From: Undaria pinnatifida
Lineage: Eukaryota; Sar; Phaeophyceae; Laminariales; Alariaceae
Assembly (NCBI GenBank): GCA_012845835.1
Contig: JABAKD010000028.1
Coordinates: 14,044,648-14,108,647, forward strand
DNA length: 64,000 bases
Direction: 5' to 3'
The position numbers and the translations under genes are program-made. The notes below the pieces were generated by a model. The model was given only the letters and a program-made list of their open reading frames with translations. It was not told the origin of the DNA and did not search any database. Positions 231-64,000 of this stretch are shown here, in pieces; position 1 is the first letter of the stretch, and the number at the start of each line of letters is the position of its first letter.

Positions 231-967
231 TATGTACGTGCCGTGTGCTCATCACACGTACTACTACTGCCGTTCAGAACGTGACATCAACAAGCATCTA
301 GCGCAGGGCAATTAGCTCTGCACAAACACCTCTTCTTGGCAACATTATTTCACCGCTCCAGCTTTTCTTAGCTTTCTTTCACACTTTAGTCTATTGGTTC
401 TCCCATTATTTCGTCAATTGAATGTTGCATTTTTTTTGTTTTTCATTTTTTTCATTGTTCATTTTCCACTATTGTCAACCCTAAATTTTATTCGTTGGAA
501 CTCGTTTTTCAGGTTCTGAACATTTTTGTTAACCTTTTTTTTGTTCAACTCTTTATTTCCAAGTAACTTTTGTTTTTGGGAGTTGAACTTGGAACTGTGT
601 TTCTTCGGGAGCGTCCATGCGAGGGAGTTTAACCTTCATTTTGATAGACGTCCATGCGAACTTTTTTGTAATGCGCCCAAGGGCGCACAGCGCAAGGCAA
701 CAACAGGAGGAGCAAGCTTAAGCTGTGGGCCAGTTATGACAATTAATTATTAATTTTTTTTCGTTTTTCAGTTGTTTCCTCGTTCATTTTTTACTGTTGA
801 TATCTCCTATAAATTTGATTCGTTTGATGAACTCGTTTTTCATCTTCTTCTGAACATTTACCATTAATTGGTCCAGCTTTTCTTTGATTTCTTGCTTGGA
901 GTTTTCACCATTCAACCGCTCGTACTCACAGCTGACGTTTTTCAATTTTTATATAAAATATTTAAAA
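231..967. other. T-rich non-coding stretch
   Basis: The segment is T-rich and holds short ORFs without recognisable domains. Several runs of T and repeated TTCATTTTTT...GTTGAACTCGTTTTTCA-like pieces (near 420-545 and 780-850) suggest an old local duplication. I see no gene. Confidence 0.4.
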
Positions 968-7734: not shown

Positions 7735-8402
7735 CCAGTGCATGTATTATAACTCTTGCCTTCCCGCCCCCTCCTTCCCCGTCACCCCCACCATCGCCTA
7801 GACCTAGTACCACACGTAATTTACTAGATTCCCACCAGGTATACATTCATGCGACCCAAAAATAGTTTTGAAATTCCCTACGCCCCCCTCCCCCCTCGAA
7901 ACCTCCGGAATATAATAAACTGATTGATGCATTCCATCCACATCCGTCAGACTAGTCACCTTAAGGGGGTTATGATTTCCGCGCACAGGTTGAGTTGCCC
8001 CCCCCCCCCCACCCCCACCCCCCCCGTTCCCCCCTCCTTTTCAACCCCCCCGCGCCCCGGCCCCCGGCCCCCACACCCTTCAAAATTCCGCCCTCCCCTC
8101 ACAGGATATTCGACTTACAGGATATACTTGATAAACGAATGCAATCCTTTCCACAACAACAGCTGTTAGATTTTGCCCCCCTCGAAAACGGGTTTATGAA
8201 ACGTTTCCGGGCACAGACTGGTTAACATCACTTTGTTAACCCTGTTTCAAGCTACACTGTAATTCCAAGGGGAGTCGCCGACCTATTTACCCTTGATGAG
8301 GACACACACGGTAATACGCGCGATCGAAGCAAGACACACAGCTTGCAAAGGTGAGTTTCGACGAAATCTTCGATCTCACAGCTGGGAAAGCGTATTATTT
8401 TT
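7735..8402 (+). repeat. Family A copy A2
   Basis: This copy is in the opposite orientation to A1, so its tracts read as C. The CCATCGCCTAGACCTAG module is followed by a C-rich block near 7999-8080 and the terminal module ending CGATCTCACAGCTGG near 8390. Confidence 0.75.
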
Positions 8403-8737
8403 ATGTTGTAGTACTCAGCAGTACTCAGCATGCTATCAATTTTGGCGAAATAAACTCAAAGTAATGCCAACTATAAATAGGGCACGTTTTTATGGCACCA
8501 TTCGACGGGAGTCGACGAGGGAAGAACATGCTGAAATGTTCTCGCGACACAAATCAAGGCACGTACCGTAGTGGGGCAGTAGAGCTTACCACTTTTTGAA
8601 TAACATGGTTGACGCACACTGTGTACGAGAAGAAGGGGTTTTCACCGTACCGTACAATGGTTGCTGCGTTTCATTCGGTTAGGGTTAGGGTACATATGAT
8701 TTTAAGGGTTCGTCAACCATGTTGCAGTACTGGGCCC

Positions 8738-16100: not shown

Positions 16101-19100
16101 AGCGAGCTAATAACTTCATCGTGGTGTTGTTTGGGAGTATATATGCTGCAACGTACCGACTTCCGGTACGAGGAACTGCTCCATGTACTCTACTCTACTG
16201 TACTGTACTGTACTGTACTGTACTGTGATTACTACAACACACTTTGGACATCAGAATATACCACTCGCATGCCAAGGTTTTTCAGTCGTAGATAGACCGC
16301 GCTCAATGCTGTCTACCATGCGTGCGTATCAGTAATACAGCGTTGTGACTGGACACCGACATCTATTATTAGTACTAGCAAGAGACTACTACGTTGTCGG
16401 ACAGAGACCCGGTAGGCTGTTTGCTACCACTGCTACTGTATTGTAACAGTGGAATGCCGATAATTAGCAGTGTCGTGCACACTGACATTACAGCGCGGAG
16501 CCAAACAAAGTTGAGTTGCAATGCTGGCCGTGGTTTGAAAAACTGACCAGGCAATAGGCAGTTTCAGATTGGTGATTTTTCGGACTTTGAACTTGGACGT
16601 TCAGAAATAGGCTGGGCTCCTCTCATACCAGTTCCGAAATTGATTCTTCGCTCATTGACAGCTACAGCATCGAAACTGCACCGGTGAAGTAGCTGTCGGC
16701 TCCCGGAAAAAAGTTCGCGACTCTAGCGCTCGAAACATTTATCACTACTATTAATACTACAGTGTTGGCCACGCAACTGATCTAACTTCCAGCCGACCTA
16801 AGTTGAAATCTTTTTCGCGAAACATTCAAAACTTGAAGTTTTTGTTTATTGTTTTAGTGCGTTCATGTCTGTACAGGTTCCAGCCTATTCCGTAGGGTAT
16901 TTCGTACTTACCGTCTGCATGACCGCCTCCCAACCTGATGCCAAGTGAAGTATGACTAACGAAGTAACAAAACTGAGCGCGTGCGCACCAATCGTTCCTT
17001 TTCAAAACACTGACGATTAGCATTCCTCCCTCTCTCTCGTCCTCAATGGCGGTGGCATTGCATGATCTCATCACCTCGCCTGTTGTATTTGGCAATATGT
17101 ATCTATTTCTTACAATTAGCGATGTCAGAAAAGGATGGTAACTACATGATTGTACCTATCGATTAAAACATTCCATCTTTCAAAATCCAGGTACCATAAC
17201 AAATTATGAAGCTTCAACACGTTGTTCGAACGCCCCACTTACAATCGAAATCGGCCAGAGAGTAATAAACACTTCTACGCAATTGATACCACGTCATTAT
17301 CTTTTTAGCCATCCATGACGTAGCTTCCATCCACCCCCCCCCCCCCCCTTTCAACGCCACCTCCTTCCCCACCACCCGCACGATCGTCTAGATCTAGCAC
17401 CACGCGTATAACAAGCCCCTACATACATTATTAATACGCGCGATAGGAGTATCACACACCATAATATTTCATCTCACAGCTGGAGCGTATTCTATTTTTT
17501 TGTGACCCAAACCTCTTGAAAACCCTTCCGCCCCCCCTTTGTTTTTGTCTTGCTCAAACGCCCCACCTAAAATATCGAAATCCGCCAGAGTAATAAACAC
17601 TTTCACGCACTGGATATCACCTCATTAACCTTCACAAGCCACTAAAGCCATCCATGCCGCTGCTGCAATGTCCCCCTCCCACCCCGCCCCCACCCCCCCC
17701 ACCACCTCTTCCTTCCCCACCACCCGCATCATCGCCTAGACCTAGCACCACGCGTATAGCAAACCCCTATATCTGTGCGATCTAACGCCCTTTCGCCCCC
17801 CCCCCCCCCCCCACCTCCCCCCCCCCCGTTCCCCACCTCCTCAACCCCCCACCCCCCCACCCCACCCCCACCCCCTCGAACACTCCGCCCTCTACTCACT
17901 GGTTGTACGACTCACAGGATATACATGATAAACTGGTGCATTCTTTCCAAAACCTTCACTTTTATCCCCTTAAATGATGTAAAGTTTCCACGCACAGATT
18001 GAGTTGCCCCGCCCGCCCCCCCCCCCCCCCCCCCCCCCGCCCCTCATGATAAATTAGTGCATTCTTTCCAAAACCGTCGGATTTATCCCCTTGAAGGATT
18101 TGTAGTTTCCACGCACAAGTTGAATTGCCCCCCCCCCCCCCCCCCCTGCTCCCTGTTAATGAAACCAAGGCCCTCACGTCCTTAAAAACTCCGACCTCCC
18201 CTCACCGGTTATTCGACCTGTGGGATTCATTTGATAAACTGATGCATTTCCTTCCACGGCTGTCAGATTTTGCCCCCCTCAGAAACGGGTATTATAGTTT
18301 CCGCGCACAGACTGCCTAACATCACCCTGTTGACCCTGATATCTACACTGTAGTTGCAAGGGGAATCGCCGACCTATATCCTTAATGCGGACACTTAACC
18401 CGTGATACGCGCGATCGGAGTATCACATACAGCTTGCAAAGATGAGTTTCGACAAAAGAAATCGATCACACAGCTGGAGCGTACTTCTTTTTTTTTTAAT
18501 ATATTGGACCAAGATTGCGTCTGCTGAAATTCAAAATTGGAGCATGTGTGTTGTGGATTGGCAGCATGTGTATATACCAGGTACCAGTAAGTTAACTACA
18601 ACTTTTTTAAGTACCTAGACTCTACACACGAATCGCGCCTACACCGAAGACCACAAAACCATGCCCATCACCACCAGCGTCAGGACAGAGCGCGCAGACG
18701 ACTCGGTACAGGTTATTTTCGCCGCATGCTTGCCCTGCTTGGTTTGCCTTTCTGGGCATCGGCCCAAGACAAGTTCTGGTTCGCTACAATCATCGTCCCA
18801 GGGCTTTTGTCCAGTCAAATAAAAAAACCTGTCGGGCGTAAAGATTGATCAGTGCCTTGAACCCCACGTAGGTCTTGGCCTTGGCCGTCTTTCGTGACTG
18901 CTGCTCTTCACGAGCAATAGCCAGGGTCTTTAGGCTGGCGGCTGCAGACCTTCTGCTATGCCGATGAGGTGGCATAGCTGTTGGGTGGGCAGGGCAGCCC
19001 CTAGGCTTGATTGTGTGACCACGCCCCCTTTCAGGTCAACTCTGATTGTTTGGGAGAGGTGCCTGGACGTCTAAAAAATTCCGGGTAGCTGCTGTAGAAA

Positions 19101-27903: not shown

Positions 27904-28067
27904 TTGAATTGTACCTACTCGCGCGACCGCGCGCCCGGTGGTATCAGCTCCGAGGACTCTCCCTCGTCGGCCCGGAGTCCGTTTGCCGACAATGCAATAG
28001 TTAGTTCGTTATCACACGGGGAAGTGACATGGAATCGGCCGTGGACCTTTTCGTATAAAATATAGTA

Positions 28068-28210
28068 AAAAATACACCCCAGCTGTGAGATCGAAGATTT
28101 TGTCGAAACTCATATTTGCAAGCTGTGTGTGATACTCCGATCGCGCGTACTTTACGGGTTGTGTGCCCTCATTAAGATATAGGTCGGCGACTCCCCTTGC
28201 AACTCCCGTA
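28068..28210 (-). repeat. Family A terminal-module fragment A5
   Basis: Only the terminal module is present, from ACACCCCAGCTGTGAGATCGAAGAT to AGGTCGGCGACTCCCCTTGCAACT. The copy is cut where the repeat would go on. Confidence 0.75.
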
Positions 28211-28419
28211 TATATCTCAAGATCTCAAGAGCTCACAAGAATCGCCAATATTGACAATTAAACTTCGTGACAAAATGTATCCAACACCATTCTATGTACG
28301 GTAAAATGCCTAATGATACGACCACAGCGGTACAACTCGCAGACGGCAGAAGGTTGCCAGGCCCAGCTTGTCGCACCGGCCCCGAAAACCGATGTCTCGA
28401 GGCCTTACAGTCTGGCCAG

Positions 28420-35585: not shown

Positions 35586-35694
35586 TTTCGACGAGTAGAG
35601 GAGGGAGCCGGGTTGTACATGCGAAATTGGCATGAAACCGAAAGACACAGTGCTGCAGAGCGACACGCAAAGGCTGCGGCAGCGCCATCCCCCA

Positions 35695-36005
35695 CGTCTT
35701 TAAAACTCCGCCCTCCCTTCACCGGTTATTCGACTTGCACGATTGACTTGATAAACTGATGCATTTCCTTCCACAGCTGTCAGATTATGTCCCCCTCAAA
35801 AACGGATTTTATAGATTCCGCGCACAGACTGACTAACATCACCCTGTTGACCCTGATAGCTACACTGTAGTTACAAGGGGAGTCGCCGACCTAAATCCTT
35901 AATGAGGACACACAACCCGTGATACGCGCGATCGGAGTATCACACACAGCTTGCAAATATGAGTTTCGAAAAAATATTCGATCTCACAGCTGGAGTGTTT
36001 TTTTT
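35695..36005 (+). repeat. Family A copy A6, abutting LINE copy 1
   Basis: The repeat begins at ACGTCTTTAAAACTCCGCCC, immediately after the LINE tail, and ends with CGATCTCACAGCTGGAGTG. The sharp junction marks one sequence inserted into, or recombined with, the other. Confidence 0.8.
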
Positions 36006-36009
36006 CTAT

Positions 36010-38300
36010 ATATAGACTACATTTTTAATCTGCTTATTGAAAACATTGATGTGGACGAAGTAGTAGGTGCTTCATCGGTGCGATCGCTGGATCGCGATAT
36101 ATTTGCGGGTGACATGTGATGAGCTGTAAGAGGTTTAAACGCGACAGATAGATATGTGTTGAATGATTGGGGATAAAGCCGACGACTAGCTCTTTCTACC
36201 TTAACAGTAGGGACACGAGGTGGATTTACATCACCTGATACCCTAGTTGTACCGTGTGAGTATTGCGTTTCGGCGTGATATTGACTCAGTAACGTTCGTT
36301 GTCTCCGTTAACCTACCACGTTTTGGCATGATTGATTGTCGGCGTTGTTTATTTTTTTAAATACTTTGGTTTATATAACTCCAGCTGTTTTACGGACACA
36401 ACCAACACGAAGAAGAGGAAGAAGATTCCGACATAAGGCATAATAAGGCCGGTGGGGAGAGAAATAAGGGAGCAAATAAAAATAAAGAAAAAAAGAAGAA
36501 AAAAAGAAAGGACGACAACAAGTCATTATTAGAGTATACTGTCGCGTTCGCGCTACCCCTATTTAACTCAACGTAAAACAAATAAACGAGGCAGAAGGTA
36601 CCACTCGCTGTATGTAGAGGGTTCAGGGCTATAATAAAACACGATCAACTTAATTAGTCGAACTGATATCAGAGCCATCCCACGGTACGGTCGCCCCGGT
36701 GGCGTATCAGGTTATCCTCGAGCCTGGTATAGGTCAGTTTCGTGAGTTCGAGCCCCCCCCGGGTGCATACACGTATGAATTCGTGGGGACTTTTCTTGTC
36801 CACAAATAGACTTGCGGAAAGCGCAAGAGCATGAATTAGCAACACTCGATGAAAAATCGACGAGCAGTGGGAATGTTGAACCCTATGCGCGATGTAAATT
36901 CAAGGCAAGAACCGGGGGAGAGAAGGGAAGGCACCTGTGACCACGGCTTGTGCAGAAGCTGGAAAGTGGAAGTGTGCCAAAAAAAAAAAAAAAAAAGTTG
37001 CAGCATAAAGTTCCTGAGCTCCTGACATGAGGAACTCAATATCTCACCATGAAAATGACTTGGAAGGCATTTGTTCGCACAACCCGACGAAGCTTCTATG
37101 CCTTAGTCCAGAAATACAATGTACGCGTGAAATTACTCCTTTGACCGGCAGTTCCTCACATGACGAACTCAATCCCCCAGGGACGTTTTATCGCATTCCT
37201 ACAACTGAAACGCCTACCGTTTCTGCATGAGCCTACAGCTGTATCAGTACAGCTGTTCCCCTCCCCCGCCCCCCCAGTTTCCCTTGGTTGCTGCTCTTGT
37301 CGTCCTCTGCTGTGAGGCGCTGCCATCTCTTCTCTGCCTCGCCCCTGTGCCATCTCTTAGTAGAGCGGTCCGCCGCGTCGACGATCCCCTGGTGTCAGTT
37401 CCCACTCCCTCGGCCATTCCACAGTAGTCGTCTTTAATCCGAACAGTAAAGGCGAGCTATCCGTGGACCCCTCCGTTGCTTCGAATACCCTGAGACCGCC
37501 TTAGACTACCAGACACTGGCCCAGTTCTTTTATGGTTGGCCTCGTCATAGTAGGGTCGTCATAGAAGGGTTCACCCCGCCATAGTAGAGTTTAAAAATAT
37601 GAAAACCACAGCAGTAGTACGACTGCATGCAGCAACCACGCGATACGTACCCTACAAAGTGCATGTTACCTGATGTTTTCAGCATGTTACGCACTATGTG
37701 TACAGTGCCTTTCTTTGTCGTACGCAGTAAAGCCTTTTATATTGCTGGTACTACCTCCTACCAATGAGTTTCCTTCTTGCACAGTGCCCTGTTACAGCAT
37801 ATCATATATAGTTCAGCTACAGTAGTACTATTCTTTGGTGTGTTCCATCCCGTTCTCCCCTGGCCTTGCCCTGCCCAGAAAAGAAAACGCTCATCCCAGC
37901 TCTTTTTTTTGTTCTGATCTGCCGTGCTTATTGCCTTCGCTCACTCAGCCCGCTCGTTTAGACGTTCCCTGGTTCTAATCGCCTTCGCTCACTCAGCCAG
38001 CTCCCTTGCACATGCGGCCGTTCGTTGACACTCAATTTCAATGCCACTGTCGGCTTAATAATAAATTAAAATGCCTCTCGCGGCCTTCTGTGTGCTGGGC
38101 TTGAAAAAATATTGAGAATGACCACGCCATCACCACCACCACCACCGCCACAACCGTCACCGCGGCAGGGACATGTACCGAGTATAACTTGGTGGCGATG
38201 GTGGTGGTGGGTGGGCGGGCGGGTGAGTGGATGGTGGTGATGGCGGAAACATAGAGTTCCTAGGAGGTTTTGTTGTTTATACTACACTTTATTGAGGACC
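36010..38300. other. Mostly unannotated, with a possible tRNA-like segment
   Basis: CGGTGGCGTATCAGG and GAGTTCGAGCCCC at about 36697-36760 resemble tRNA A and B boxes, but no cloverleaf is convincing. CACCACCACC-rich and GGTGGTGGTGG-rich segments at 38125-38155 and 38190-38240 form an imperfect inverted repeat. No gene is seen. Confidence 0.35.
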
Positions 38301-38339: not shown

Positions 38340-38387
38340 CTGGTCCTTTCTGGTCTTAAGCTTTGGTACTACTATAACAATAAAAGT

Positions 38388-39700
38388 ACACTTCAGCTGT
38401 GAGATCGAATATTTTGTCGAAACTCATATTTGCAAGCTGTGTGTGTGATACTCCGATCGCGCGTATTGCGGGTTGCGTGTCCTCAACAAGGATATAGGTC
38501 GGCGACTCCCCTTGCAACTACAGTGTAGCTATTAGGGTCAACAGGGTGATGTTAGTCAGTCTGTGCGCAAAAACTATAAAACCCGTTTCTGAGGGGTACA
38601 AAATCTGACAGCTGTGGAGGGAAATGGCATCAGTTTATCGAGTGAATCTTGTAAGTCGAATATCCGGTGAGGGGAGGGCGGAGGTTAGAAGGACGTGGGG
38701 GCCTTGTTTTGATTAAAAGGGAGCGGGGGTGGGGGGAGGGATGGGGGCGGGACGGGGGGGGGCAGCTCAATTTGTGCGTGGAAAGTATATGTCCTTCAAG
38801 GGGATAACTCTGACGGTTTTGGAAAGAATGCACCAGTTTATCGTAGGGGTGGGCGGGGAGCGGGACGGGCGTGGCAGCTCAATCTGTGCGTGGAAACTAT
38901 ACATCCTTTAAGGGGATAAATCTGACGGCTGTTGGAAAGAATGCACCAGTTTATTATGTATATCATGTAAGTCGTACAACCAGTGAGTGGAGAGCGGAGT
39001 GTTCGAGGGGGTGGGGGTGGGGTGGCGGGGGGGGGGGGGTGTCGGGGGGCGGGCGGACGAAAATGCTTTAGGTCGCATAGATTTAGGGGTTTGCTATACG
39101 CGTGGTGCTTGGTCTAGGCGATGGCGCGGGTGGTGGGGAAGGAGGGGGCGTTGGAGAGGGGGGGTTGGGGGGGGGGGGGGGATTGCAGAAGCGGCATGAA
39201 TGGCTCTAGAAAGATAATGAAGTGATATCCAGTGCGTGGAAGTGTTTATTACTCTGGCGGATTTCGATATCAAGTGGGGCGTTTGAGCAAGAGAAAGCGG
39301 GAAGAACAAAAAAAAAAGGCGGGGGAGGAAGGGGAGGGGGGGGGTTCAAGAGATTTAGATCACATATAATATTTCGACAAAATATTCTATCTCACACCTG
39401 GAGTGTATTTTCATTTTTTTGACTAATATATAAATACCCTCCAGAGAGCTGTGAGATCAAAGATTTGGTCGAAGCTCATATTTGCAAGATTGTGTGTGAT
39501 ACTGCGATCGCGCGTATCAATCATTTATGAAGGTGCTTGCCATACGCGCGGTGCTAGGTCTTGGCGATCGTGCGGGTGGTGGGTAAGGAGGGGGCGTTAG
39601 AGGGGGGGGGAGGGGGGGTTAATGAAAGCTACGTCACGGATGGCTGGAAAGATAATGACGTGATTATCAGAGATGCTGCTTGTCAGTAACAATGATGTCG
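38388..39700 (-). repeat. Family A copy A7
   Basis: Terminal module, then two G-tract modules of the GCAGCTCAAT(T/C)TGTGCGTGG type, then the GTGCTTGGTCTAGGCGATGG module, a GCATGAATGGCTCTAGAAAGATAATG module, an internal ACCTGGAGTGTATTTT motif, and a second round of the same modules. Confidence 0.75.
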
Positions 39701-40439: not shown

Positions 40440-41330
40440 AGGTTATAGCCTCGAGAGTTTCAAAGAAGAAATAAATAGTGATATCAATTGTGTAAAAGTG
40501 TTTATTACTCAGGCCGAATTCGATTGTAAGTGGGGCGTATGAACAAACTGGGCGGGGAAAAAATATACTCCGGAGTATATTAAAAGAAAAGCGGGGGGGG
40601 GGGGGAAGGAGTGCGGAAATGAGTTGGAGCTACGGCATGGATGGCTAGAAAGATAATGAGGTGGTATCAGCTGGCTGGTAGTGTTTGCTACTCTGGTAGA
40701 TTTTGCTTTTAGGTGGGGCATTTGAACAAGAGGGATCGGGGGGGGTGGGGGGGGGGGGGGTGGCGCGCGGGACATTTCAATATGTGCATGGAAACTTTAA
40801 AAATCCGGACACATCTGACGGTTGTAGCAAGAAGACATCAATTTAGATCACCTGCCTGGTAGTAATGTTGATTATCCTAGAAGGTTTGATCTTTGATGTT
40901 TGATGTTGTACGATCGTATGCGACCCAGTCTTATAGTAAACGACTTGTTAAAGCTTCATAATCTGTTATTGTACATGGATCGAAAGCTAGAATATTTCAA
41001 TCGATAAATACAATCATGTGAATACCATTATTTCTGACATACATCGCTAATTATATTAGCTAATTAAATTAAAAGAAAGAGATACATATTGGAAAATACA
41101 ACAGGCGAGGTGATGTAGTCATGCAATGTCACCGCCATTGAGCACGAGAGGGAGAAATGGGATTCGTCAGTGTTTCGAAAGAAACGCTTATGGTACCCGC
41201 TCTCAATTACGTTACTTGGTTAGTCATACTTCGCTTGGCATAGATAGGTTGGGGGACGATCATGCAGATGGTAAGTACGAAATACCCTACGTGGTAGATT
41301 GGTAATAATGTGGTTTGCCGCAATTCAAAA
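40440..41330 (-). repeat. Family A copy A8 (distal modules)
   Basis: It contains the AAGTGTTTATTACTC module twice, a G-tract block near 40740, the AT-rich TGTTATTGTACATGGATCGAAAG module and the TTTCTGACATACATCGCTAATTAT...AACAGGCGAGGTGATG unit. It lacks the terminal module. Confidence 0.7.
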
Positions 41331-41384
41331 TATTTGCCTGTACTTCTTATTCACACTATTATTATTATTGAAAAAACAAACAAA

Positions 41385-41628
41385 CATTCCAGGTGTGCGA
41401 TTGAATATTTTGTCGAAACTCGCCATTGCAAGCTGTGTGTGATACTCCGATCGCGCGTACTACGAGTTGTGTGTCCTCATTAAAGATATGGGTCAGCCAC
41501 TCCCCTTGCAACTACAGTGTAGCTATCAGGGTCAACAAGGTGATGTTAGTCAGTCTGTGCGCGGAAACTATAAAACCCGTTTTTGAGGGGGGCAAATCTG
41601 ACAGCTGTGGAAGGAAATGCATCAGATT
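41385..41628 (-). repeat. Family A copy A9, ends at the Harbinger-like element
   Basis: The terminal module reads intact up to GGAAATGCATCAGATT, where the terminal repeat of the 41629-42787 element begins. Confidence 0.8.
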
Positions 41629-41989
41629 AGAGTGTTTGCGAAAAAACGTTTCTAAAAATTTACTTGCCTTCCGCTAAAAAAAGTAAATTGCCTTCCCACC
41701 GAGTTTTTGGTGTGTTTGCGCTAGCGGTAAACAAAATCCTGCAGGCGACGCCTCCGAAATTTAGAAGGGAAACGGGGATGTGCGCGATTGTAATATACGT
41801 ACGAGTACAGCAGCAGCAGTGCGAGTTACTGCTCTATAGTACTAAACGATACGAGTACTCGTTGTACGTACTCCAGTCTCGAGCCTCTCGTTTCAGGTGC
41901 AGCAGTACCTGGAACACGGTACATGCAAGCACCCAACAGACTACAAATTAGAGGTATGGCGGTCTGTCTCGCGCGTAAAAACACCTTGT

Positions 41990-42382: not shown

Positions 42383-42799
42383 GCGCTGAACCCTTGGTCA
42401 CGGACGCAGAGGGCAGCAACAGGCGGTTCATCACCGGCCTGCTGCATATCTCTGATGTTACGCCTGTGCGTCGTGCTCAGGGTACTACCCTCTCCATCCT
42501 CCGTGCGTTCGTTGCTTGTACTGCTGCTGTGCAAACAGCGGTGCTTGTCCTGTTTGTCCCGTGGTTGGGGCGCTATAGACCCTTGCAGAGGCGTTCTGCC
42601 TCGGACAAATGCTCGGTGTATTGTAGGCCAATGAAACAGAGAGACAAAATTTACCGTAACTTTTGATCAAAACCTACCTTCGACAAAGTACATTTTTGCC
42701 TTTTTTTCAAAAATTTACCGCAAATATTGCCTTCGGGACAATTTTTGAAAAAGTAAATTTCTAAAAACGTACTTTCGCAAACACTCTATCATTGCAAAA

Positions 42800-43480
42800 A
42801 ATTATAAAAAATGAAAATACACTCCAGCTGTGAGGTCGAAGATTTCGTCGAAACTCATCTTTGAAAGCTGTGTCTGATTCTCCGATCGCGCGCATTACGA
42901 GTTGTGTGTCCTCATTAAAGATGCAGGTCGGCGACTCCCCTTACAACTACAGTGTAGCTATCAGGGCCAACAGGGTGATTTTAGTCAGTCTGTGCGCTGA
43001 AACTATAAAACCCGTTTCTGAGGGGGACAAAATCTGACAGCTGTGGAGGGAAATGTATCCTTTTATCAAGTGAATCTTGTATATCGAATAACCGGTGAGG
43101 GGGGGGGGCGGAATTTTGAATGACGTGGGGGGCTGGTTTTGATCAAAAGCGAGCGGGTTTGGAGGGGGGGGGGGGGGAAGGGGGGGCAATTTGTGCATGT
43201 AAGTTATAATCCTTTGAAGAGGATAAATCTGACGGTTTTGGCACCAGTTTATTATTGGGGGGGGGGGTTGGGGCGGGGGTGGGGTGTGTGGGGCAGCTCA
43301 ATATGTGCGTGGAAACTATACATTATTTTGAGGGGATAAATGTGACGGTTTGGAAGTAATGCATCAGTTTATCATGTATATCCTGGGGTAAGTCGTACAA
43401 TCAGTGAGTAGGGAGAGGGTGGAGTGCTCGAGGGGGTGGGGTTGGGATGGGTTGGGGGGGGGGAAGGTAGGGGGGGGGGG

Positions 43481-43513
<33 letters not shown>

Positions 43514-44620
43514 CGGGGGAGGGGGCGGGGGGGGGCGGGGGGGGAGGGGGGGGGGGGGAAGGAAGGGTTTTAGGTGAGGGGTTTGTTATACGTGTGGTGC
43601 TAGGTCTAGGCGATGGTGTTGGTGATGGGGAAGAAGGGGGCGTTCGGGGCGGGGGGGGGGGGGAAAGCAGCGGCATGGATGGCTCTCGAAAGATAATGAG
43701 GTGATATCCTGTGCGTAAAGTGTTTATTTATCAGGCGGATTTCGATATTTGGTGGGGCGTTTGAGTAAGGGAGAGCGAGAGGGAGGGGGGGGGGGGGGGG
43801 GAGGGAAGAGATTTTTTAGCAGGTTTAGGTCACAAATAATATCCAAATACACCTCGGCTGTGAGATCAAAGATATTTAGGGGCTTGTTGTACGCGTGGTG
43901 CTAGGTCTAGGCGATCGTGCGGGTGGTTGGAAAAGAGGGGGTGTTGAAGGGGGGGGGGTCGGGGGGAAAAAAAATGAAAATTACGTCATGGATGGTCAGA
44001 AAGATAATGACTTGATATCAACTGCGTATAGGTGTTTACTACTCTGGCCGATTTCGATTGTGAGTGGGGCGTTTGGACAAACTAGGCGGAAGGGGGGGGG
44101 GATCGGGGGACGGGGGGCGGGGGGCGGGGGGCGGGGGGGGTTATGAACAAGAGGGGTCAGGGGAGAGGGAGGGGAGGGGGGGGGCGGGGGGCGGGACATT
44201 TCAATATGTGCGCGGAAACTATATATCCTCAAAGGGGACAAACCTGACGATTCAAGCAATAAGACGTCCCTTTACATAATCTGGCTTGTAATGTTTACTA
44301 TTTTAGAAGGTTTGATGTTCGATGCAGCATGCAACCTAGTGTTTATGTGTAGTAAATAACGTGTTAAATCTTCATAACTCGTTGTTGTATGATACATGGA
44401 TCGAAAGGTAGAATATTTTATAGAATATTTGTAGTTACCAATATTTTCTGACATCGCTTATTATAGAAAGAGATACGTATTGTCAAATACAACGGGCGAG
44501 GTGATGTGGTCATGCACTGGTTGTCACCGCCATCATACAGTTACCATTATTTTCTGACATCGCTAACTATACGAAAGAGAAACGTATTGGGAAATACAGC
44601 ATGCGAGGTGATGTTAAGTG
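42800..44620 (-). repeat. Family A copy A10, most complete, with the longest G block
   Basis: Full module series: terminal module, two GCAGCTCAAT modules, GTGCTAGGTCTAGGCGATG, GCATGGATGGCTCTCGAAAGATAATG, a second internal terminal-like motif (ACACCTCGGCTGTGAGATCAAAGAT), a second pass, the AT-rich module, and two tandem TTTCTGACATCGCT units. About 43430-43560 is almost pure G and could form G-quadruplexes. Confidence 0.8.
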
Positions 44621-45200
44621 AATCGTGTCAGTCGAATAACCGGTGAGGGGAGGGCGGAGTTTTGAAGGACGTGGGGGGCTGGTTTTGATCAAAAGGGAGC
44701 GGGGGTGGCGGGGGGGGAAAGGGAGGTGGAGGGGGGGGGGCGGGGCAGCTCAATTTGTGCGCGGAACCTATTAATCTTTCAAGGGGATACATCTGACGGT
44801 TTTGGAAGAATGCACCCGTTTATCATGGGGGAGGGGGGGGGGGCAGCTTAATCTGTGTGTGGAAACTATACATTTTTTTAATGGGATAAATGTGACGGTT
44901 TGGAAAAAATGCACCAGTTTATCATGTATATCGTGTAAATTGTACAACCAGTGAGTAGAGGGCGGAGTGTTCGAGAGTGTGGGGGTGTGGGTGGGGTGGG
45001 GGGGGTGGGGGGGTGTGGGGTGTGGGGGGGAACGTTTGGGGGGGGGAGGGGGGGGGATGGCATAGATGTAGGGGTTTGCTATACGTGTTGTGCTAGGTCT
45101 AGGCGATGCTGCGGGTAGTGGGGAAGGAAGGGGCGTTAGAGGGGGGTGGTTGGGGGGGGGGGGGAGAATGAAAACTTCGTCATGGATGGTTGGAAAGATA
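44621..45200 (-). repeat. Family A copy A11, left part
   Basis: It starts mid-module (GTGAATCGTGTCAGTCGAATAACCGG) and runs to CATGGATGGTTGGAAAGATA, where an LTR element interrupts it. It resumes at 51584. The uninterrupted equivalent is visible at about 43985-44035. Confidence 0.8.
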
Positions 45201-45505
45201 GTGTTGATTGTATGCTTGGGTATGATACGGATATGATGACGGTTGAGTATAGTAGGGGTTTCCAGTGATAGATTGGCTTCATCGTAGCGGTATATCGGGA
45301 TGGTGGAATGATTTAAGCTTTTTCGCCGTCACTCCTCCTTGTGCTTCTTCAACCGTGTGAGTCTTCTCTTCTCCACGCTGCGCCTTGGCTGGGAGCAACG
45401 TATTTTGTATGCACGTCTAAAACTTGTCTTCATACCGGCGACTCCACCACCCCACTATTGTCAGCTCAACGGTAAGCCCTCTACGCTTCGTAGGGATCAA
45501 CAAAC
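45201..45505 (+). repeat. 5' LTR
   Basis: 305 bases sharing GATTGTATGCTTGG, TATAGTAGGGGTTTCCAG, CGGTATATCGGGATGGTGGAA and CCCTCTA-CTTCGTAGGGATC with the 3' copy. The leader that follows shows no clear initiator-methionine tRNA primer site. Confidence 0.8.
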
Positions 45506-51583: not shown

Positions 51584-52730
51584 AGATAATGACGTGATAT
51601 CAACTGCGTAGAGGTGTTTATTATTGTGGCCGATTTCGATTGTACGTGGGGCGTTTAAACAAACTGGGCGAAAAAAAAAAAAGAAGGGGGGAGGGGGGGA
51701 GAGAAGGGCGGAAATGACTTTGAGCTACGGCATGGATGTCTAGGAAGATAATGAGATGACATCAGCTGGCTGGTAGTGTTTTCTACTTTGGTAGATTTTG
51801 ATTTTAGATGCAGTATGCAACTCAGTGTTGTAAATAACGTGTTAAATCTTCACAATTTGTTATTGTACATGAATCGAAAGATGAATATTTCAATCGATAG
51901 GTACTATCATGTAGTTTCCATTATTTTCTGACATCGCTACTTACATGAAAGAGATACGTATTGCCAAAAACAACAGGCAAGATGTGGTCATGCATGTCAC
52001 CGCCATCATGTAGTTACCATTATTTTCTGACATCGTTAAGTATAAGAAAGATATACGTATTGATAAATACAACAGGAGAGGTGATGTGGTCATGCAATGT
52101 CACCGCCATTGCGCACGAGAGGGAGAAATGCGAATCGTCAATGTTTTGAAAGGAACGCTTGGTGTACACGCGCTTAATTACGCAACTTCGTTAGTCATGC
52201 TTCGCTTGGCATAGGTTGGGAGGCGATCATGCAGACGGTATGTACGAAATACCCTTCGTAATAGGTTAGTAGTGTGGTTTTACCGATTTTAACATATTTG
52301 CCTGTGCTTCCTTTTCAAATAGTATTTGTCTCAAATGTACAATTTCACGCCCATGATTGTTACCGTGCCGATGTGAGGCTCTGAGGTTGCCAATCCTAAG
52401 ACAGAGATACATCTTTCAAATGCAACAATCGAGGTGGGCATGCGATGTCACCACTATTGAACGCGAGGGTGACTTTACTTCGTTAGGCATATGCTACTGC
52501 GTTTGGTAGAGGTTGTCTCACGTGGGCATGCGATGTCACCACTATTGAACGCGAGGGTGACTTTACTTCGTTGGGCATATGCTACTGCGTTTGGTATGTT
52601 AGAGGTTGCCAGGCGATCATGCAAACGGATGGAGGCACGAAATACCCTGCGCAATAGGTTGGTCGTGTGGTTTACCGCAGTGTTAACATATCTGTCTGTA
52701 CTTCTTTTTGACATCATTTCCTAGTGCACG
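51584..52730 (-). repeat. Family A copy A11, right part
   Basis: It resumes with AGATAATGACGTGATATCAAC, the continuation of the module cut at 45200, then the AT-rich module and two TTTCTGACATCG units. Near the end an 88-bp tandem duplication (52434-52609) repeats GTGGGCATGCGATGTCACC...TACTGCGTTTGGTA. Confidence 0.75.
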
Positions 52731-52749
52731 ATTATACGCCCTGTTTTCT

Positions 52750-53905
52750 CCCCACTGTCGTCGAAGATGTTGTGGTCCTGTAGATGTCGCGTCCGTGTCT
52801 GGTGATCTTCTTAGTGGTGCTCATAAAAACATGCTCTAACGAGTAGTAGATGATTGCTGAGTGGTGTTCTTTTCGTTTACATCAAGCCAGGTAGTACATG
52901 TCAACGCAACCGCTTGCTTGAAAACGACAAAAAAAAATCCTCACACACCTGACACAGAGGAGACGCGGCCCGATGATTGTTCAGTATACCGACGGTCAGG
53001 AACAGGTTATCGAGCAGCGCACTTGGTTTTTACTACCGCTCCTCACTCCACCCAAAACACTACGGGCTTGCGTTGGACCTGTTTGCTGATGCCCAAAACC
53101 AATTGCAAAGGAGGTGATGTGGTGGACAAATGCTATAATGATATGCGCTGCTGCGATTACCCCGTTTCTCGTTCTGTTTTTCTTGCGTTCTTGGTGAACC
53201 TGTTATTTGGCAACGAGCAGGTTTTGACGCATTTTGGGTTTGTGTATAGACTTTATGTAGACTATGTGATGTTTCTGACTCGGATGCACCTCAATTTGGA
53301 ACCCAGGGTGTATGGGTTCCATCTTTTGACTGGGCTTATATGTGGACGTATATATATATATGTGGTTTTTGTGTGTCGTGTGTCCGCGTGGTTGTTGCTA
53401 TACGTGTATGTTTTGGTTGATGTTCTAGACTTCGTTATCGTATTGTTTCAAAGTGGTGCTTTCAGCGTGGTTGTTGCTACACGTATATGTCTTGGTTGAT
53501 GTTCTAGACATCGTTATCGTGTTGTTTCATAATGTTGTTTTCGAATACATATTATGTAATGTCCGCGTGGTTTTTGCTACATGTGTATGTTTTGGTTGAT
53601 GTTCTAGACTTCGTTATCGTATTGTATAATAAGAGTGGTGTTTTCGAATGCATATTACTTTGGGTGCGTATGATTGTTGCTACACGTGTATGGTTTGGTT
53701 GATGTTCTAAACTTCGTTATCGTGTTGTTTCAGTAGAGTGTTTTCGAATACATATTTTATACAGTGGTTGGGGGGGGGGGCGGCTGTTGTGCATATCTGC
53801 AAAACGTACTTATGTCCTCCGAGAAAACTGCTTCGAGGGGATAAAAATGAAGTTACGAGGGACGTTTGGGAATTTCAACGTCCCCCCTCGCGTTATTTGA
53901 CCACG
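52750..53905 (+). repeat. Family C dispersed repeat, copy 2
   Basis: This is the partner of 31165-32615. The unit around TTTTGGTTGATGTTCTA(G/A)AC(T/A)TCGTTATCGT occurs four times in tandem (about 53392, 53467, 53565 and 53668), versus two or three dispersed copies in copy 1. A 212-residue ORF starts here but shows no domain. Confidence 0.75.
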
Positions 53906-53986
53906 GGTGGTAGGTCCATGGTTGGGTCACTCACGGAGACAGAAGTCACGTAATCCGGAGAGCCATCGGGCTGGGAAGAGAAGTAA

Positions 53987-54650
53987 AGTAGAGTTTCGAA
54001 GTACGGCTGTGGGGATTTTCCTCCCCAGCGACTTGGTGACCCCAATCATGAGAAATTGGAGACCACGTACAATTTTATTATTATTTCTCGGAGAACCAAC
54101 CTGGTTCCGCCGCATCTCCTCACATGCGTTACGGTTTCACAAAACCACAAATAATATCCCTATCAGGCTTTGGTACAAGCACAAACCAACATTCCCCCTA
54201 CTTGTAACACAGTCATGATAACGCCCGTTCAAACCGACAAGCAAAAATCAATACTCAGAACCAACCAATATTGTCCACTCAAATCAATATACTCCAAGTC
54301 CTCCATCAACCGAATTTTTTATACCGAAATCGAGATAAAAAATCTCAAATATCATCGTTCAATACTCAAAAGCAACCAATAATGTTGTTCCCCCATATTA
54401 ATATACTCCGAGTCCTCCATCAACCGATTTTGTTTTTTTTTTGTCAGAGTTTCGAAGAAGTGCAGCTGAGGGGCGTTTCCTCCCCAGCCACGTGGTGACC
54501 CCAATCATGAGAGATTGGAGACCACATACATTTTTATTTTTATTTCTCGGGGAACCAACCTGGTTCCGCCGCATCTCCTCACATGCGTTACGGTACACAA
54601 ACCACAAACAACATTCCAATCGGGCTTTGGTACAAGCACAAATCAACACG
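53987..54650 (+). repeat. Two direct repeats of about 200 bp and inner tandem repeats
   Basis: AGAGTTTCGAAG...CCTCCCCAGC-AC-TGGTGACCCCAATCATGAGA and GGAACCAACCTGGTTCCGCCGCATCTCCTCACATGCGTTACGG occur at about 53987-54185 and 54450-54645. Between them, AATATACTCC(A/G)AGTCCTCCATCAACCGA(A/T)TTT occurs twice (about 54287 and 54400). No coding is recognised. Confidence 0.75.
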
Positions 54651-55084
54651 CGTCTCTTGTCAAGTATGGCGAAATGCATATTTATCTCTGAATATGAAAC
54701 ATGCAATAACCAGCCTTGCCAACTATGGGTTGTAGCGGTATCATAATACACTTATAATACATTTACTCTTGATAGTTTGACAATGTGTGCAATAATTATT
54801 TTGCTGCACGGTGTGGGTTGAATCCATGTACGGAGTGAGGCTAGGGTTGAAGCTTTAACAATAAAGAAAGAGAAAAAAGGGGGGCATTTTACAAGAAAGC
54901 TTCTATATATAGTTAGTCCGCTTATTGAGTACATTGATGTAGACGAAGTAGTAGGTGTTTCATCACTGCGATCGTTGACGAAGTAGTAGGTGTTTCATCA
55001 CTGGGATCGTTGGATCCGGACATGTTGGCGGGTGACATGTATGTGATGAGCTGTGGGAGGTTTTAACGCGACAGATAATATATA

Positions 55085-56080
55085 AAATACTCTACAGCTG
55101 TGAGATCGAAGATTTTTTGGTAACTCATTTTTGCAAGCTGTTTGTGATACTCCGATCGCGCGTGTTACGGGTCGTGTGTCCTCATTAAGGATACAGGTCG
55201 GCGACTCCCCGTGCGACTTCAGTGTAGAAATCAGGGTCAATAGGGCGATGCTAGTCAGTATGTGCACGGAAACTATGAAACTCGTGAAAGGAAATGCATC
55301 AGTTTACCAAGTAAGTGAAACCTGGAAGTCGATGATCGGTGAGGGAAGGGCAGAGGTTTTAAGGACGTGGGGGCCTCGTTTTGATCAAGAGGGAGCGGGG
55401 GAGGGGGCGGGGGGGGGCAGCTCAATTTGTGCGTAGAAACTATATATTCACTATATATCGTTTAAGGGGATGGCTCTGACGGTTATGGCAAGAATGCACC
55501 CGTTTAACATAAAGGGGGGGGCGGGGGGGCGGGACAGGTGGGGCAGCTCAATCTGTGCGAGGAAACTATACATCCTTCAAGGGTATCATAAATGTGACGG
55601 TTTTGGAAAGAATGCATCAGTTTATTATGTATATCCTGTAAGTCGTACAACCAGTGAGTAGAGGGCGGAGTGTTCGAGGGGTGGGGTGATGGGGTGGGGG
55701 AGGGGTGGGGGGGTTGGAGTGGGGAGGGTTTTAGGTCGCGTAGATGTAGGGGTTTGCTATACGCGCGGTTCTAGGTCTAGGCGATGGTGCGCGTGGTGGG
55801 GAAGGAGGGGGTGTTGGGGGCGGGGGGGAAGGGCGGGCGGGGGGGGGGGGAGGGGGGGAGTGAATTCCAGCAGCGGCATGGATGGCTTTAGAAAGATAAT
55901 GAAGTGATATCAAGGGCGTGGAAGTGTTTACTACTCTGGCGAATTTCGATATTAGGTGGGGCGTTTGGCCAAGAAGAGGGAGCGGGACCTAAAAACAAAG
56001 AGGGTGGGGGGTGGGGGGAAGGGTTTGCAAGAGGTTTAGGTCACAAAATTTACACCCCAGCTGTGAGATCAAAGATTTGG
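55085..56080 (-). repeat. Family A copy A12
   Basis: The terminal module (CTACAGCTGTGAGATCGAAG) is followed by G-tract modules near 55395, 55515, 55690 and 55820-55860, and an internal ACACCCCAGCTGTGAGATCAAAGAT near 56050. Confidence 0.75.
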
Positions 56081-56299
56081 TACATATAGCAACCATGTTT
56101 GTCATATATATTTCGTTTCGGAAATATTTCTCGCAGACAGCCTGGACACAGCTGACCGCATTTTACACAGAGACTACGTTCAGCGCTGTGGCTTCGCTCC
56201 ATCGCCTGCTCCTCATTAAAAGTGGCGAATAACAGCTACGAAGCAAAAACACGTGATTATACCTGGTCATCCGGTGCTATGTTTCCCAGGGTTCGTTTT

Positions 56300-56689: not shown

Positions 56690-57265
56690 CATTAATCCCC
56701 TAGACCTAGCACCATGCGTATAGTAAGTTCCTACCGGGTATACATTTATGCGATCTAAAGCGATTAACCCCCTCCCCCCCCCACCCCCACTTTCGAACAC
56801 TCTCCCCCCTCTCCTCACCGGTTGAACGATGTACCATAAAGGGTATTCATGATAAACTGATGCGTTCCTCCCACAACCGTCAGATTTGTCCCCTTTAAGG
56901 GTTTATCGCTACTACTGCACAGATTGAGTTGCCACCTCCGCACGCCCCGCCCCCCCCCGGCCCCACGCCGTGAAAAATATTCTTCCTCCCCTCACCAATT
57001 GTACGACTTACAGGATATACTTCATAATTTTATTCCTTTCCTTCCACAGCTGTCAGATGTTTCCTCCTCAAAACTGGTTTTACTGTTTCCGCGCACAGAT
57101 GGATCACCCTGTTGACCCTGGTACACGCTTCATTGTAGATCCAAGGGGAGTCGCCGACCCCTATCCTTACTGAGGACACACAACCCGTAATACGCGCGAT
57201 TGGAGTATCACACCCATCTGGCAAAAGATGAGTTTTGACAAGATCCTCAGTGTCACAGCTGGATT
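56690..57265 (+). repeat. Family A copy A13
   Basis: It runs in the C-tract orientation from CCCTAGACCTAGCACCATGCG to the terminal module ending GTGTCACAGCTGGATTG. The G/C tracts are short, and the copy is more diverged than A10. Confidence 0.7.
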
Positions 57266-58074
57266 GAATTCTGGTATCACGCAGGTACCATTCATTTTAG
57301 CGCATGTTTGTCGGTGTCGCTGCTGTCTTCCAAAATTTTGACGACAAAGAACCGTTTCAACTTCCTGCAAAACCACCTCCAGGGTCACCGCTTTACTTCC
57401 CAAATCAATGTACCAATGATGAAAATTCTTGTTTGCGCATTTCAATAATTTGAAAGTTATGAATCATTAATAATACATTCAGGAAAATACGAAAAATTCG
57501 ATGATCTGCGTGGTGCTTCGTGCTGTAGACAAATCTTCTCTTCTAACACGGTGATACGCATCTAATCTTCTCCTCTAACACCGGTTCAAAATTACTTATT
57601 ATAACTTCACTAATTCCTGTGGCACACACAGGTTACGGTGCCGTGGACATTGGGCTCACAGCGCAATCATGTGGGCGTTTGGCTTAGACGTCGCTTCGTC
57701 AAAGTGCCTCCCTACCCTGCAAGACGCTGGTTGGGAAGGGTGCTACTTCTTCTCTCGTGAGGGCCTTTAGCCACTCAGCTGTCACCTTTGACGAACAGCC
57801 GGACACGAAGAACGTACGCGCGAAAGCGCTACGAAGTCTTTGCAAAGGCGCAGGATGTTGTTTGTGCGGGGATTGTAGGGGGTGTAGTCTAGAGTGTGGT
57901 GCTCGTGAAACGTGGTAGGCCACGTGTGTGTGGATGTGCAGGTAAGACAAAAGAAAAAATGACGTTTTTAGTTGCAATCTCACTTACTCCACTCATTTCC
58001 AAAATCACAATACGAGACATAAACCTACGATATTGCGTTCGCAAGTACCGGTAGTCTAGACTAAAACCCCGGAA
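57266..58074. other. No gene seen
   Basis: Sequence between family A copy A13 and LINE copy 2. Short ORFs only. CGTGGCCTACCACGTTTCACGAGC-type sequence near 57900 has no recognised relatives in this window. Confidence 0.4.
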
Positions 58075-59500: not shown

Positions 59501-59607
59501 ATTGTCGGCATCTCAAAGCGGCCGGGGGGAGAGGAGGGGAAGGGGGGGGGGGGGGGGAGAAGGGGGGAAGGGGGGAAGGGGAGGGGGGGGGGAGGGGGGA
59601 CGTCATG

Positions 59608-62817: not shown

Positions 62818-62980
62818 ATTGTTGTTGTTCTTGTTCTTGTTCTTGTTCTTCTTCTTGTTGTTGTCGTTCTCACGTTTACTCGCATAATCAATTCCGCGGT
62901 CACAGGACAGGCTCCAGTCACTCTGGAGCTGAGGAATACCCCAGAGAAAAACACAAACGAACCAAAGGTGGTACACACCT
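62684..62980 (+). repeat. Long GTT microsatellite plus family B copy 3 (partial)
   Basis: About 60 GTT triplets (62684-62865, with minor interruptions) lead into CTCACGTTTACTCGCATAATCAATTCC and the GGACAGGCTCCAGTCACTCTGG core, truncated near 62980 where family A begins. The poly-Val, poly-Leu and poly-Asn ORFs here are artefacts. Confidence 0.8.
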
Positions 62981-64000
62981 CGCATGTTGTATTTGGCAAT
63001 ACGTATCTCTTTCGTATAATTAGCGATGTCAGAAAATAATGGTAACTATATGATGGTGGTGACAAACCGTGCATGACCACATCACCTCGCCTGTTGTATT
63101 TGGAAATACGTATCTCTTTGTTGTAATAAGCGATGTCAGAAAATGATGGTAACTACAAATATTCTATAAAATATTCTAGCTTTCGATCCATGCACAACAA
63201 CAAATTATGAAGATTTAACACGTTATTTACTACACTTAAACACTGGGTTGCATACTGCATCTAACATCAAACCTTCTAGAATAGTAACATTACCAGGTAG
63301 ATGACATAAAATGATGTCTTCTTGCTACAAATCGTAAGATTTGCCCCCTTTAAGGAGTTATAGTTTCCGCGCACATATTTAAATGTCCCGCCCCCCGCCC
63401 CCCCCCTCTCCTCCCCCTCCCCCGATCCCTCTTGTTAAAAAAAAAACACCCCTTTCCCCCCCCCCCCTCTCCCCCGATCCCTCCCGCCCCCTCCCCTTTT
63501 CCCGCCTAGTTTGTCCAAACGCCCCACTCACAATCGAAATCGGCCAGAGTAATAAACACCTATACGCAGTTGGTATCACGTCATTATCTTTCTGACCATC
63601 CATGACGTAGTTTTCATTCTTTCCCCCCACCCCCCTCAACCCCCCCTCCAACGCCCCCTCTTTTCCCACCACCCGCACGATCGCCTAGACCTAGCACCAC
63701 GCGTATAACAAGCCCCTACATATCTTTGATCTTACAACCGGAGTGTATTTGAATATTATTTGTGACCTTAACCTCCTGAAAAAGTTTTTTCGCTCTCTCT
63801 TGCGTCAACGCCCCACCTAATATCGAAATCCGCCAGATTAATAAACACTTTACGCACTGGATATCACCTCATTATATTTCTAGAGCCATCTATGCCGCTG
63901 CCTCCCCCCCCCCCCCCCCCCCGCCCCGAACGCCCCGTTCTTCCCCACCACCCGCACCATCGCCTAGACCTATCACCGCACGTATGACAAACCCCTCACC
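62965..64000 (+). repeat. Family A copy A14, truncated by the window edge
   Basis: Two tandem CCTCGC(A/C)TGTTGTATTTGG units, the AT-rich module, C-tract modules at about 63390-63500, then the CGCCCCACTCACAATCGAAAT and CGATCGCCTAGACCTAGCACC modules. The terminal module would lie beyond the window. Confidence 0.75.

What the first reader, a model, noticed from the sequence alone, without database searches (positions are those of the whole stretch)
42800..44620. Family A: modular repeat punctuated by strand-polar poly-G tracts
At least 14 copies or fragments cover about a fifth of the window, in both orientations. Modules of roughly 80-150 bases recur in a fixed order, with runs of 8 to more than 30 G at the joints. 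The G runs always fall on the same strand relative to the repeat. The GGAAACTATA...GATAAATCTGACGG...CAGTTTATCA segment appears in several modules, including the terminal one, so the family may have grown from one tandem monomer. I see no ORF and match it to no known superfamily.
Basis: partly seen in the sequence, partly recalled or inferred. Interest (0 to 1): 0.72.

Follow-up and report, generated by a model that had tools for sequence, protein, structure and literature searches.

The report
Long non-coding kelp retroposon with G-tracts
The repeat is a very abundant 'jumping' DNA of a kelp that carries no recognisable gene and appears to be copied through RNA by another element's enzyme, usually arriving cut short at one end; its long runs of G lie between old duplicated pieces of the element.

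Summary
Family A covers about 20% of the window; all 99 G/C runs of 6 or more inside its copies lie on one strand, and module order holds in 18 of 19 long copies. The assembly is almost certainly Undaria pinnatifida. Exact 22-mers of the family occur 7,870 times near one end, 2,054 times 560 bp further in, 150 times 2.3 kb in. Of 20 copies sampled by a 37-mer at that end, 18 stop at scattered points on the other side; four others elsewhere are only 21-22 nt long. Several long copies have 7-15 bp target duplications, but an independent sample of 18 shows no excess over A/T-rich flanks. No coding signal was found. Best reading: a long, non-coding, LINE-type (target-primed) non-autonomous retroposon whose sense strand is opposite to the G-runs. 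Its B, C and D modules diverged 17-39% before copies dispersed (2-5%), so this is not a growing satellite. An inverted end beside one window copy looks like a tiny nested antisense insertion, not a terminal inverted repeat. The partner enzyme and the far end were not found. The G-tracts look like hypervariable joints; truncation is not clearly concentrated in them. New variant of a known kind.

The parts
42795..44614 (+). longest window copy with the constant end (c11), in the G-rich orientation; inferred sense strand is minus. Constant terminus at 42795-42820, far end at 44614
   Evidence: 61 genome matches to query 42800-44620 (40 of 10,087 candidates scored), many spanning query 2-1815 at 87-92%
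42808..43054 (+). module U with constant terminus; its end is a diverged B monomer (B0)
43062..43154 (+). module J
43191..43254 (+). B1 monomer
43295..43441 (+). B2 monomer plus its 3' spacer
43454..43559 (+). longest G-tract, at the B2-C joint
   Evidence: joint length 137-204 in 18 genome copies
43577..43645 (+). module C, first copy
43673..43770 (+). module D, first copy
43812..43871 (+). module E: internal decayed copy of the constant terminus (AAATACACCTCGGCTGTGAGATC), probably a former nested or tandem insertion
   Evidence: also found in c1, c14, c16
43877..43943 (+). module C, second copy
43984..44080 (+). module D, second copy
44199..44259 (+). B3 monomer
44261..44614 (+). G-poor tail modules T1, T2, T2'
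955..2072 (+). copy c1, begins at the constant end, ends in a G-rich tract
7765..8414 (-). copy c2
10710..11219 (-). copy c3, ends in a G-tract
16880..18506 (-). copy c4, reaches the tail modules
28054..28219 (+). copy c5, about 145 bp of the constant end only
35689..36014 (-). copy c6, abuts an RT-bearing LINE copy at 35690
38366..39302 (+). copy c7
39372..39424 (-). tiny antisense copy of the constant end between c7 and c8, with TAATAT on both sides (read by eye)
39428..39670 (+). copy c8, constant end joined to module C
40460..41363 (+). copy c9, lacks the constant end
41364..41634 (+). copy c10
44615..45210 (+). copy c12, internal fragment adjoining c11
51584..54940 (+). copy c13, mostly the part beyond what c11 holds; matches element (reference) positions 1438-3970, interrupted after about 53892, similarity to L026 resuming near 54655 (by eye)
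55070..56085 (+). copy c14
56695..57275 (-). copy c15
62972..64000 (-). copy c16, runs off the window edge

Best explanation
Family A is a long (copies reach at least 4 kb), non-coding, non-autonomous retroposon of the kelp Undaria pinnatifida, multiplied by target-primed reverse transcription with an enzyme supplied by another element, most likely a LINE. SHOWN: one sharp shared terminus ((TATAT)TATAAAAAATGAAAATACACTCC in the G-rich orientation); scattered truncation at the other side; copy numbers that fall steeply with distance from the shared end; insertion at A/T-rich sites, often TATAT; 7-15 bp target duplications in some copies; no coding signal in the part tested; modules duplicated before dispersal. 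INFERRED: the shared terminus is the RNA 3' end, so the transcript is the C-rich strand and ends about ...GGAGUGUAUUUUCAUUUUUUAUA(AUAUA); its AU-rich end pairs with a nicked TATAT target, the enzyme copies the RNA into a G-rich first strand, and stops early in most events. A/T-rich sites inside the family are themselves targets, so copies nest head-to-tail; the internal terminus in module E is a fossil of such an event, and the same process plus tandem duplication of B explains the modular plan. The G-tracts are slippage-prone joints inherited with the element.
For: One sharp end, one scattered: 20 copies were drawn by an exact 37-mer at the terminus (so that part is shared by design); the few bases outside it are also nearly fixed (16-18 of 18 at positions -5 to -1), then unrelated flanks begin; 18 of 20 end on the other side at scattered element positions from 92 to about 1280. 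Exact 22-mers fall from 7,870 (position 39) to 2,054 (600) to 150 (2310), reversed-pattern controls 0. Of 20 fetched variants of the terminus, four stop after 21-22 nt, two of these between TATTATAT or ATAAATATA repeats. Target duplications: L015 15 bp, L023 12, L032 11, L035 8; over 27 long copies the summed flank match (173) was reached in 0 of 2,000 flank swaps. Target: A/T 83-100% at each of the first 7 bases after the truncated end, TATAT before the constant end (18 copies). No codon periodicity and no Pfam match above cut-off in four frames overlapping or matching the family. Module ages. Nested insertion: 9 of 52 upstream flanks are Family A, 8 of 9 head-to-tail.
Against: In the independent sample of 18 copies the flank match is no better than swapped flanks (sum 90; 1,998 of 5,000 swaps reach it), so duplications are short, absent or hidden by A/T-rich targets there (four of those ends set by hand). 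No autonomous element with the same 3' end was found: the RT-bearing LINE seen in the window ends in (AAC)n. The tail is not poly-A. The true far end was not reached. A stop-free run of 140-146 codons lies at the same place on the G-rich strand in 9 of 16 aligned sequences, so a lost or very fast-evolving frame is not excluded. L009 and L027 show short pieces near their far ends that resemble inverted parts of the family (by eye). The 27 copies come from the best-scoring hits, not a random sample, and the 22-mer at 2310 is held by fewer fetched loci (15 of 40 against 33 of 40 for the other two), so the last step of the decline may partly be divergence.
Confidence: 0.72

Rival explanations
1. 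The same one-ended, truncated insertion, but driven by a Penelope-like element (PLE) rather than a LINE; such elements are known (recalled) for head-to-tail partial copies and variable duplications.
For: Head-to-tail neighbours are common (six window pairs on one strand 0-1,160 bp apart: c7-c8, c8-c9, c9-c10, c10-c11, c11-c12, c13-c14); PLE/Chlamys families with 4,782 copies are listed for the brown alga Ectocarpus (PMC12477816, passage).
Against: No RT or nuclease domain seen in the family frames scanned (four frames only); no ribozyme match in Rfam. Head-to-tail arrangement is also explained by nesting at A/T-rich targets.
Confidence: 0.15
2. A non-autonomous DNA transposon or MITE with long terminal inverted repeats.
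For: Copy c7 is followed by a 47-bp inverted copy of the constant end at 87%, 949 bp between the arms. L009 has about 22 bp of inverted module U near its far end, and L027's A/T-rich far flank resembles the inverted terminus (by eye).
Against: Far ends are scattered and in the far flanks printed for the long copies and the 20 sampled copies I saw no fixed inverted end. The inverted piece beside c7 has TAATAT on both sides and is absent at the corresponding place (module E) in c1, c11, c14 and c16.
Confidence: 0.04
3. A Helitron or Helentron-type rolling-circle element carrying internal tandem repeats.
For: Non-autonomous Helentrons can carry satellite-like repeats (title and abstract start of PMC7492417, listing); A/T-rich insertion sites.
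Against: Scattered truncation of one end, target duplications in several copies, no fixed second end found.
Confidence: 0.05
4. A satellite or locally expanding tandem array, with poly-G an artefact of sequencing or assembly.
For: B+G units look tandem inside a copy (periods 121 and 99), and 2 of 20 sampled copies have an extra C-D-E unit.
Against: Modules cluster by position, not by copy. Thousands of dispersed exact matches on both strands. Read-end poly-G artefacts would be expected on either strand (inference), but all 99 window runs are on one.
Confidence: 0.03

Closest known systems
RTEX-N1_Ec32 of Ectocarpus (non-autonomous LINE-dependent family; PMC12477816, passages read)
   Same: Brown-algal, non-autonomous, very abundant (more than 6,000 copies), thought to be moved by a LINE; origin of its 5' region undetermined.
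   Different: About 600 bp and its 3' end matches autonomous RTE-X elements; Family A reaches at least 4 kb, is modular with G/C tracts, and no partner was found. The sequences were not compared.
SVA/LAVA composite retroposons of apes (abstract start of PMC7353768, listing; otherwise recalled)
   Same: Non-autonomous, composite, with internal repeats, moved in trans by a LINE.
   Different: SVA/LAVA contain recognisable Alu and VNTR parts and (recalled) end in poly-A; none of these was recognised in Family A, which has G/C-tract joints and a U-rich, A/T-ending tail.
LINE-1 3' UTR G-rich polypurine tract (recalled; PMC4407331 and PMC8074290 seen as listing and abstract start only)
   Same: G-tract inside a retroelement, with quadruplex potential.
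   Different: In L1 the tract is on the sense strand (recalled); here it is inferred to be on the antisense (first cDNA) strand.

Membership tests
Non-autonomous LINE-type (TPRT) retroposon | one constant end and variable truncation at the other | tested here: met
Non-autonomous LINE-type (TPRT) retroposon | target-site duplications of variable length | tested here: inconclusive
   Met in the 27-copy set (0 of 2,000 swaps) and in single cases (L015, L032, L102); not above chance in the 18-copy sample (1,998 of 5,000 swaps)
Non-autonomous LINE-type (TPRT) retroposon | no functional ORF | tested here: met
   No codon periodicity at positions 2151-3340 (16 sequences); four frames overlapping or matching the family, including a 146-codon run of L025, have no Pfam match above cut-off. 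Caveat: that run is open at 140-146 codons in 9 of 16 sequences; beyond position 3987 untested
Non-autonomous LINE-type (TPRT) retroposon | 3' end shared with an autonomous LINE | tested here: inconclusive
   Window LINE ends in (AAC)n; of 64 genome variants of the terminus, 20 fetched: 13 are Family A variants, 4 ultra-short insertions, 3 other; extension search did not complete
SINE in the strict sense | tRNA-, 7SL- or 5S-derived head | tested here: inconclusive
   ARAGORN 0 genes in window; Rfam no gathering match; permissive searches of two stretches give only two sub-threshold hits. The sense 5' end, where a head would lie, was not reached
TIR DNA transposon | inverted repeats at both ends | tested here: not met
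   clear only beside c7, explained as a nested insertion
Satellite | homogenised tandem array | tested here: not met
Penelope-like element | RT with or without GIY-YIG nuclease | not testable with these tools

The most novel reading that the evidence does not exclude
The G/C tracts are not passive: as the first cDNA strand is made from a C-tract RNA, each finished G-tract folds (quadruplex) and makes the enzyme pause or switch template, so the joints are both where copies break off and where modules are duplicated and joined, giving a self-diversifying modular retroposon.
Probability: 0.08. Interest if true: 0.65.

Novelty: new variant of a known kind. Interest (0 to 1): 0.42.

Why it matters
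In the published Undaria genome 36.1% (184 Mb) of sequence is repeat of 'Unknown' type (PMC7058681 Table 1, passage). If the TPRT reading holds, a share of that can be classified as one retroposon group with thousands of copies, recognisable by a 22-bp tail. It also shows how a non-coding element can become modular by nesting in its own A/T-rich sites, and it gives a natural set for testing how long G/C homopolymer tracts affect reverse transcription and assembly.

Tried and rejected
Terminal inverted repeat from the 47-bp inverted end beside c7: rejected. Window LINE (RT match at 33992-34924) as partner: its tail is (AAC)n, and in 10 of 10 fetched copies it runs on into its own G-rich tract, so c6's junction with it at 35690 is not its 3' end. 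Twin-priming inversion for L009: its inverted piece comes from the wrong end; left open. Truncation enriched in G-tracts: 4 of 18 ends lie in a G-tract (L064, L067, L070, L075), while G-runs of 6 or more fill roughly 16% of that part of the element (189 of about 1,200 bases, my sum from the run list): not convincing. Hot spot: 3 of 18 ends at 92-93 (L062, L066, L069); cause unknown. A conserved stem at the RNA 3' end: pairs GATCGGAG/CTTCGATC fold in one copy but break in c11 and c15 (alignment, judged by eye); not claimed. Sub-threshold Rfam hits snoR118 at 42804-42880 (22.8 bits against 44 needed, E 0.21) and mir-1302 (E 3.6): taken as chance. Sub-threshold Pfam hits of two frames overlapping or matching the family (E 0.063 and 0.028, both below cut-off): taken as chance. 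Exact patterns in viral contigs and blastn against phages: no match, as expected for a eukaryote.

Full report
Setting. The window is stretch C35:14044648-14108647 of a 511,146,479-bp assembly in 68 contigs. Contig C34 is 16,510,065 bp long, exactly the scaffold N50 printed for the Undaria pinnatifida genome (GC 50.14%; PMC7058681 Table 1, passages read). That paper gives 114 scaffolds and 511,280,173 bp, so the held version differs slightly (short contigs may be left out). I infer that the organism is this kelp; nothing in the tools names it.

Is the pattern there? Yes. BLAST of 42800-45300 against the window and self-BLAST give 15 blocks in both orientations, 13,056 bases or 20.4% of the window. 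Inside them all 99 runs of 6 or more G/C lie on one strand of the repeat; the 40 outside are G or C. Of 65 runs of 8 or more in the window, 57 are in the blocks, against a mean of 1.56 in 50 mononucleotide shuffles. In 52 genome copies there are 632 G-runs and 9 C-runs of 6 or more; all nine are in L019, inside the stretch that interrupts that copy between 3648 and 4585, part of which matched inverted family sequence.

Anatomy. Reading in the G-rich orientation, the order is U(B0)-J-B1-B2-C-D-E-C-D-B3-tail, with G-tracts at the joints. In 19 long copies B is found 76 times, 19 at each of four positions; the whole order is intact in 18 of 19, one C of L028 not being detected. C and D hold their length (65-68 and 94-99 bp), while the joints vary, for example 137-204 bp between B2 and C, with longest G-runs of 10-26 there and 10-55 at the B0-B1 joint (18 copies). 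Midpoint-rooted trees of 76 B, 37 C and 38 D modules put every position in its own clade (supports 0.61-1.0): divergence is 2-5% between copies at one position and 17-39% between positions, the same within one copy as between copies. So the module duplications are older than the spread of the family. Module E contains a decayed copy of the element's own terminus.

Ends. The left (G-rich orientation) terminus is constant. Long copies (L009-L028; the best-scoring hits) share ...TATATTATAAAAAATGAAAATACACTCC next to unrelated flanks. The right end is not constant: of 40 long copies 32 begin at the constant end, and they stop at 31 different reference positions between 861 and 3987; three of these leave their stretch and L026 defines the reference. 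The other eight lack the constant end in the aligned chain. Sampling through a 37-mer at the terminus (3,349 exact genome matches, reversed control 0) gave 20 copies on contig C1: 18 end at scattered points between 92 and about 1280; two (L068, L076) contain the C-D-E unit once more and their ends were not resolved. Whole-genome counts of exact 22-mers are 7,870, 2,054 and 150 at element positions 39, 600 and 2310, each with 0 reversed-control matches; the three 22-mers are present in 33, 33 and 15 of the 40 fetched loci.

Some insertions are extremely short. Of 64 genome matches to the terminus with a changed next base I fetched 20: 13 are Family A with substitutions or indels; four (L079, L095, L096, L098) stop after 21-22 nt; three (L088, L089, L090) share another A-rich sequence after it, and two of those hold a Family A terminus again about 60 nt further on. 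Flanks of the four ultra-short ones show 8- and 9-bp direct repeats in two (L099, L102) and no clear repeat in the others.

Target duplications. Clear cases are L015 (AAGCCAAGGAAATAT), L023, L032 and L035. Over 27 of 40 fetched long copies the summed match between the two flanks was 173, reached in 0 of 2,000 reshufflings. The 13 left out: eight without the constant end, three that leave the stretch (L036, L040, L041), L026 (defines the reference) and L034 (chained over a gap). In the independent 18-copy sample the sum was 90 and 1,998 of 5,000 reshufflings reached it (L068 and L076 dropped, four ends set by hand). Both flanks there are A/T-rich, so short duplications cannot be told from the target preference. 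I take this as support, not proof.

Mechanism. A sharp end on one side, truncation at any length down to about 21 nt on the other, and short variable duplications at A/T-rich sites are the marks of target-primed reverse transcription (established knowledge of LINEs). The sharp end is then the RNA 3' end, the transcript is the C-rich strand, and the A/T preference is explained if the AU-rich RNA end pairs with a nicked TATAT. This sense assignment is inference; no expression data were available. Copies also land in each other: 9 of 52 upstream flanks are Family A, 8 head-to-tail, and in the window six neighbouring pairs on one strand lie 0-1,160 bases apart (c7-c8, c8-c9, c9-c10, c10-c11, c11-c12, c13-c14). 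This gives a route to the modular plan and to the internal terminus in E.

Coding. Between element positions 2151 and 3340, 277 of 1,190 sites vary among 16 sequences with no codon-position pattern; a stop-free run of 140-146 codons on the G-rich strand is nevertheless present at the same place in 9 of the 16. That run (taken from L025) and three window frames that overlap the family or match it (44771-45328 minus, 52861-53499 plus, 31433-31885 minus) have no Pfam match above cut-off. Ten other window frames, none of them in the 15 blocks, gave a DUF7769/Tc-like transposase and two RT fragments.

Partner. Not found. The RT-bearing LINE of the window ends in (AAC)n. It carries its own G-rich tract on its sense strand (10 of 10 fetched copies), so long G-tracts are not confined to Family A in this genome.

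Literature. Searches with brown alga/poly-G/transposable element, brown alga/non-LTR/SINE/kelp, Undaria/transposable elements, and poly-G/retrotransposon/non-autonomous/modular listed 15, 12, 10 and 10 papers of 318, 257, 13,324 and 80 that held enough terms; none of those listed describes such a family by title or abstract start. Beyond listings I saw only passages of PMC12477816, PMC7058681 and PMC5907723. Repeat libraries themselves could not be searched, so the family may exist unnamed in one.

Verdict. A real, abundant family that I could match to no described one; most likely a long non-coding TPRT retroposon with an unusual modular body. The kind is known, the architecture is a variant, and the role of the G-tracts, if any, is unproven.

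Noticed in passing
window 41630-42786: An element with inverted ends GAGTGTTTGCG...CGCAAACACTC and a duplicated TA (Tc1/mariner-like by these features, read by eye) sits between Family A copies c10 and c11.
   Followed up: partly
window 2998-4521, minus strand: 507-codon open frame with a DUF7769 match and sub-threshold transposase HTH matches: a possible DNA transposase gene.
   Followed up: no
window 34308-35690 and 58070-60294; loci L049-L058: RT-bearing LINE with an (AAC)n tail and a long purine G-tract on its sense strand downstream of the RT region.
   Followed up: partly
window 35690: This LINE is joined directly to the constant-end part of Family A copy c6, just where its own G-tract should begin: a possible chimera or template switch.
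   Followed up: partly
window 45204-45505 and 51289-51583: A 300-bp repeat (84% identical) meets module D in both c12 and c13 at nearly the same place, perhaps a subfamily insertion.
   Followed up: no
L062, L066, L069: Three of 18 sampled copies end at element positions 92-93, next to GATCGGAG; a possible stop site or a short subfamily.
   Followed up: partly
L088, L089, L090: The family's 21-nt terminus followed by a shared A-rich stretch; in L089 it then runs into a tRNA-like sequence (by eye).
   Followed up: no
L032 and L018 flanks: Family A copies inserted in or right beside the 3' region of the (AAC)n LINE (by eye).
   Followed up: no
window 62685-62868: Long TGT repeat next to copy c16, apparently the microsatellite tail of the (AAC)n LINE.
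   Followed up: no
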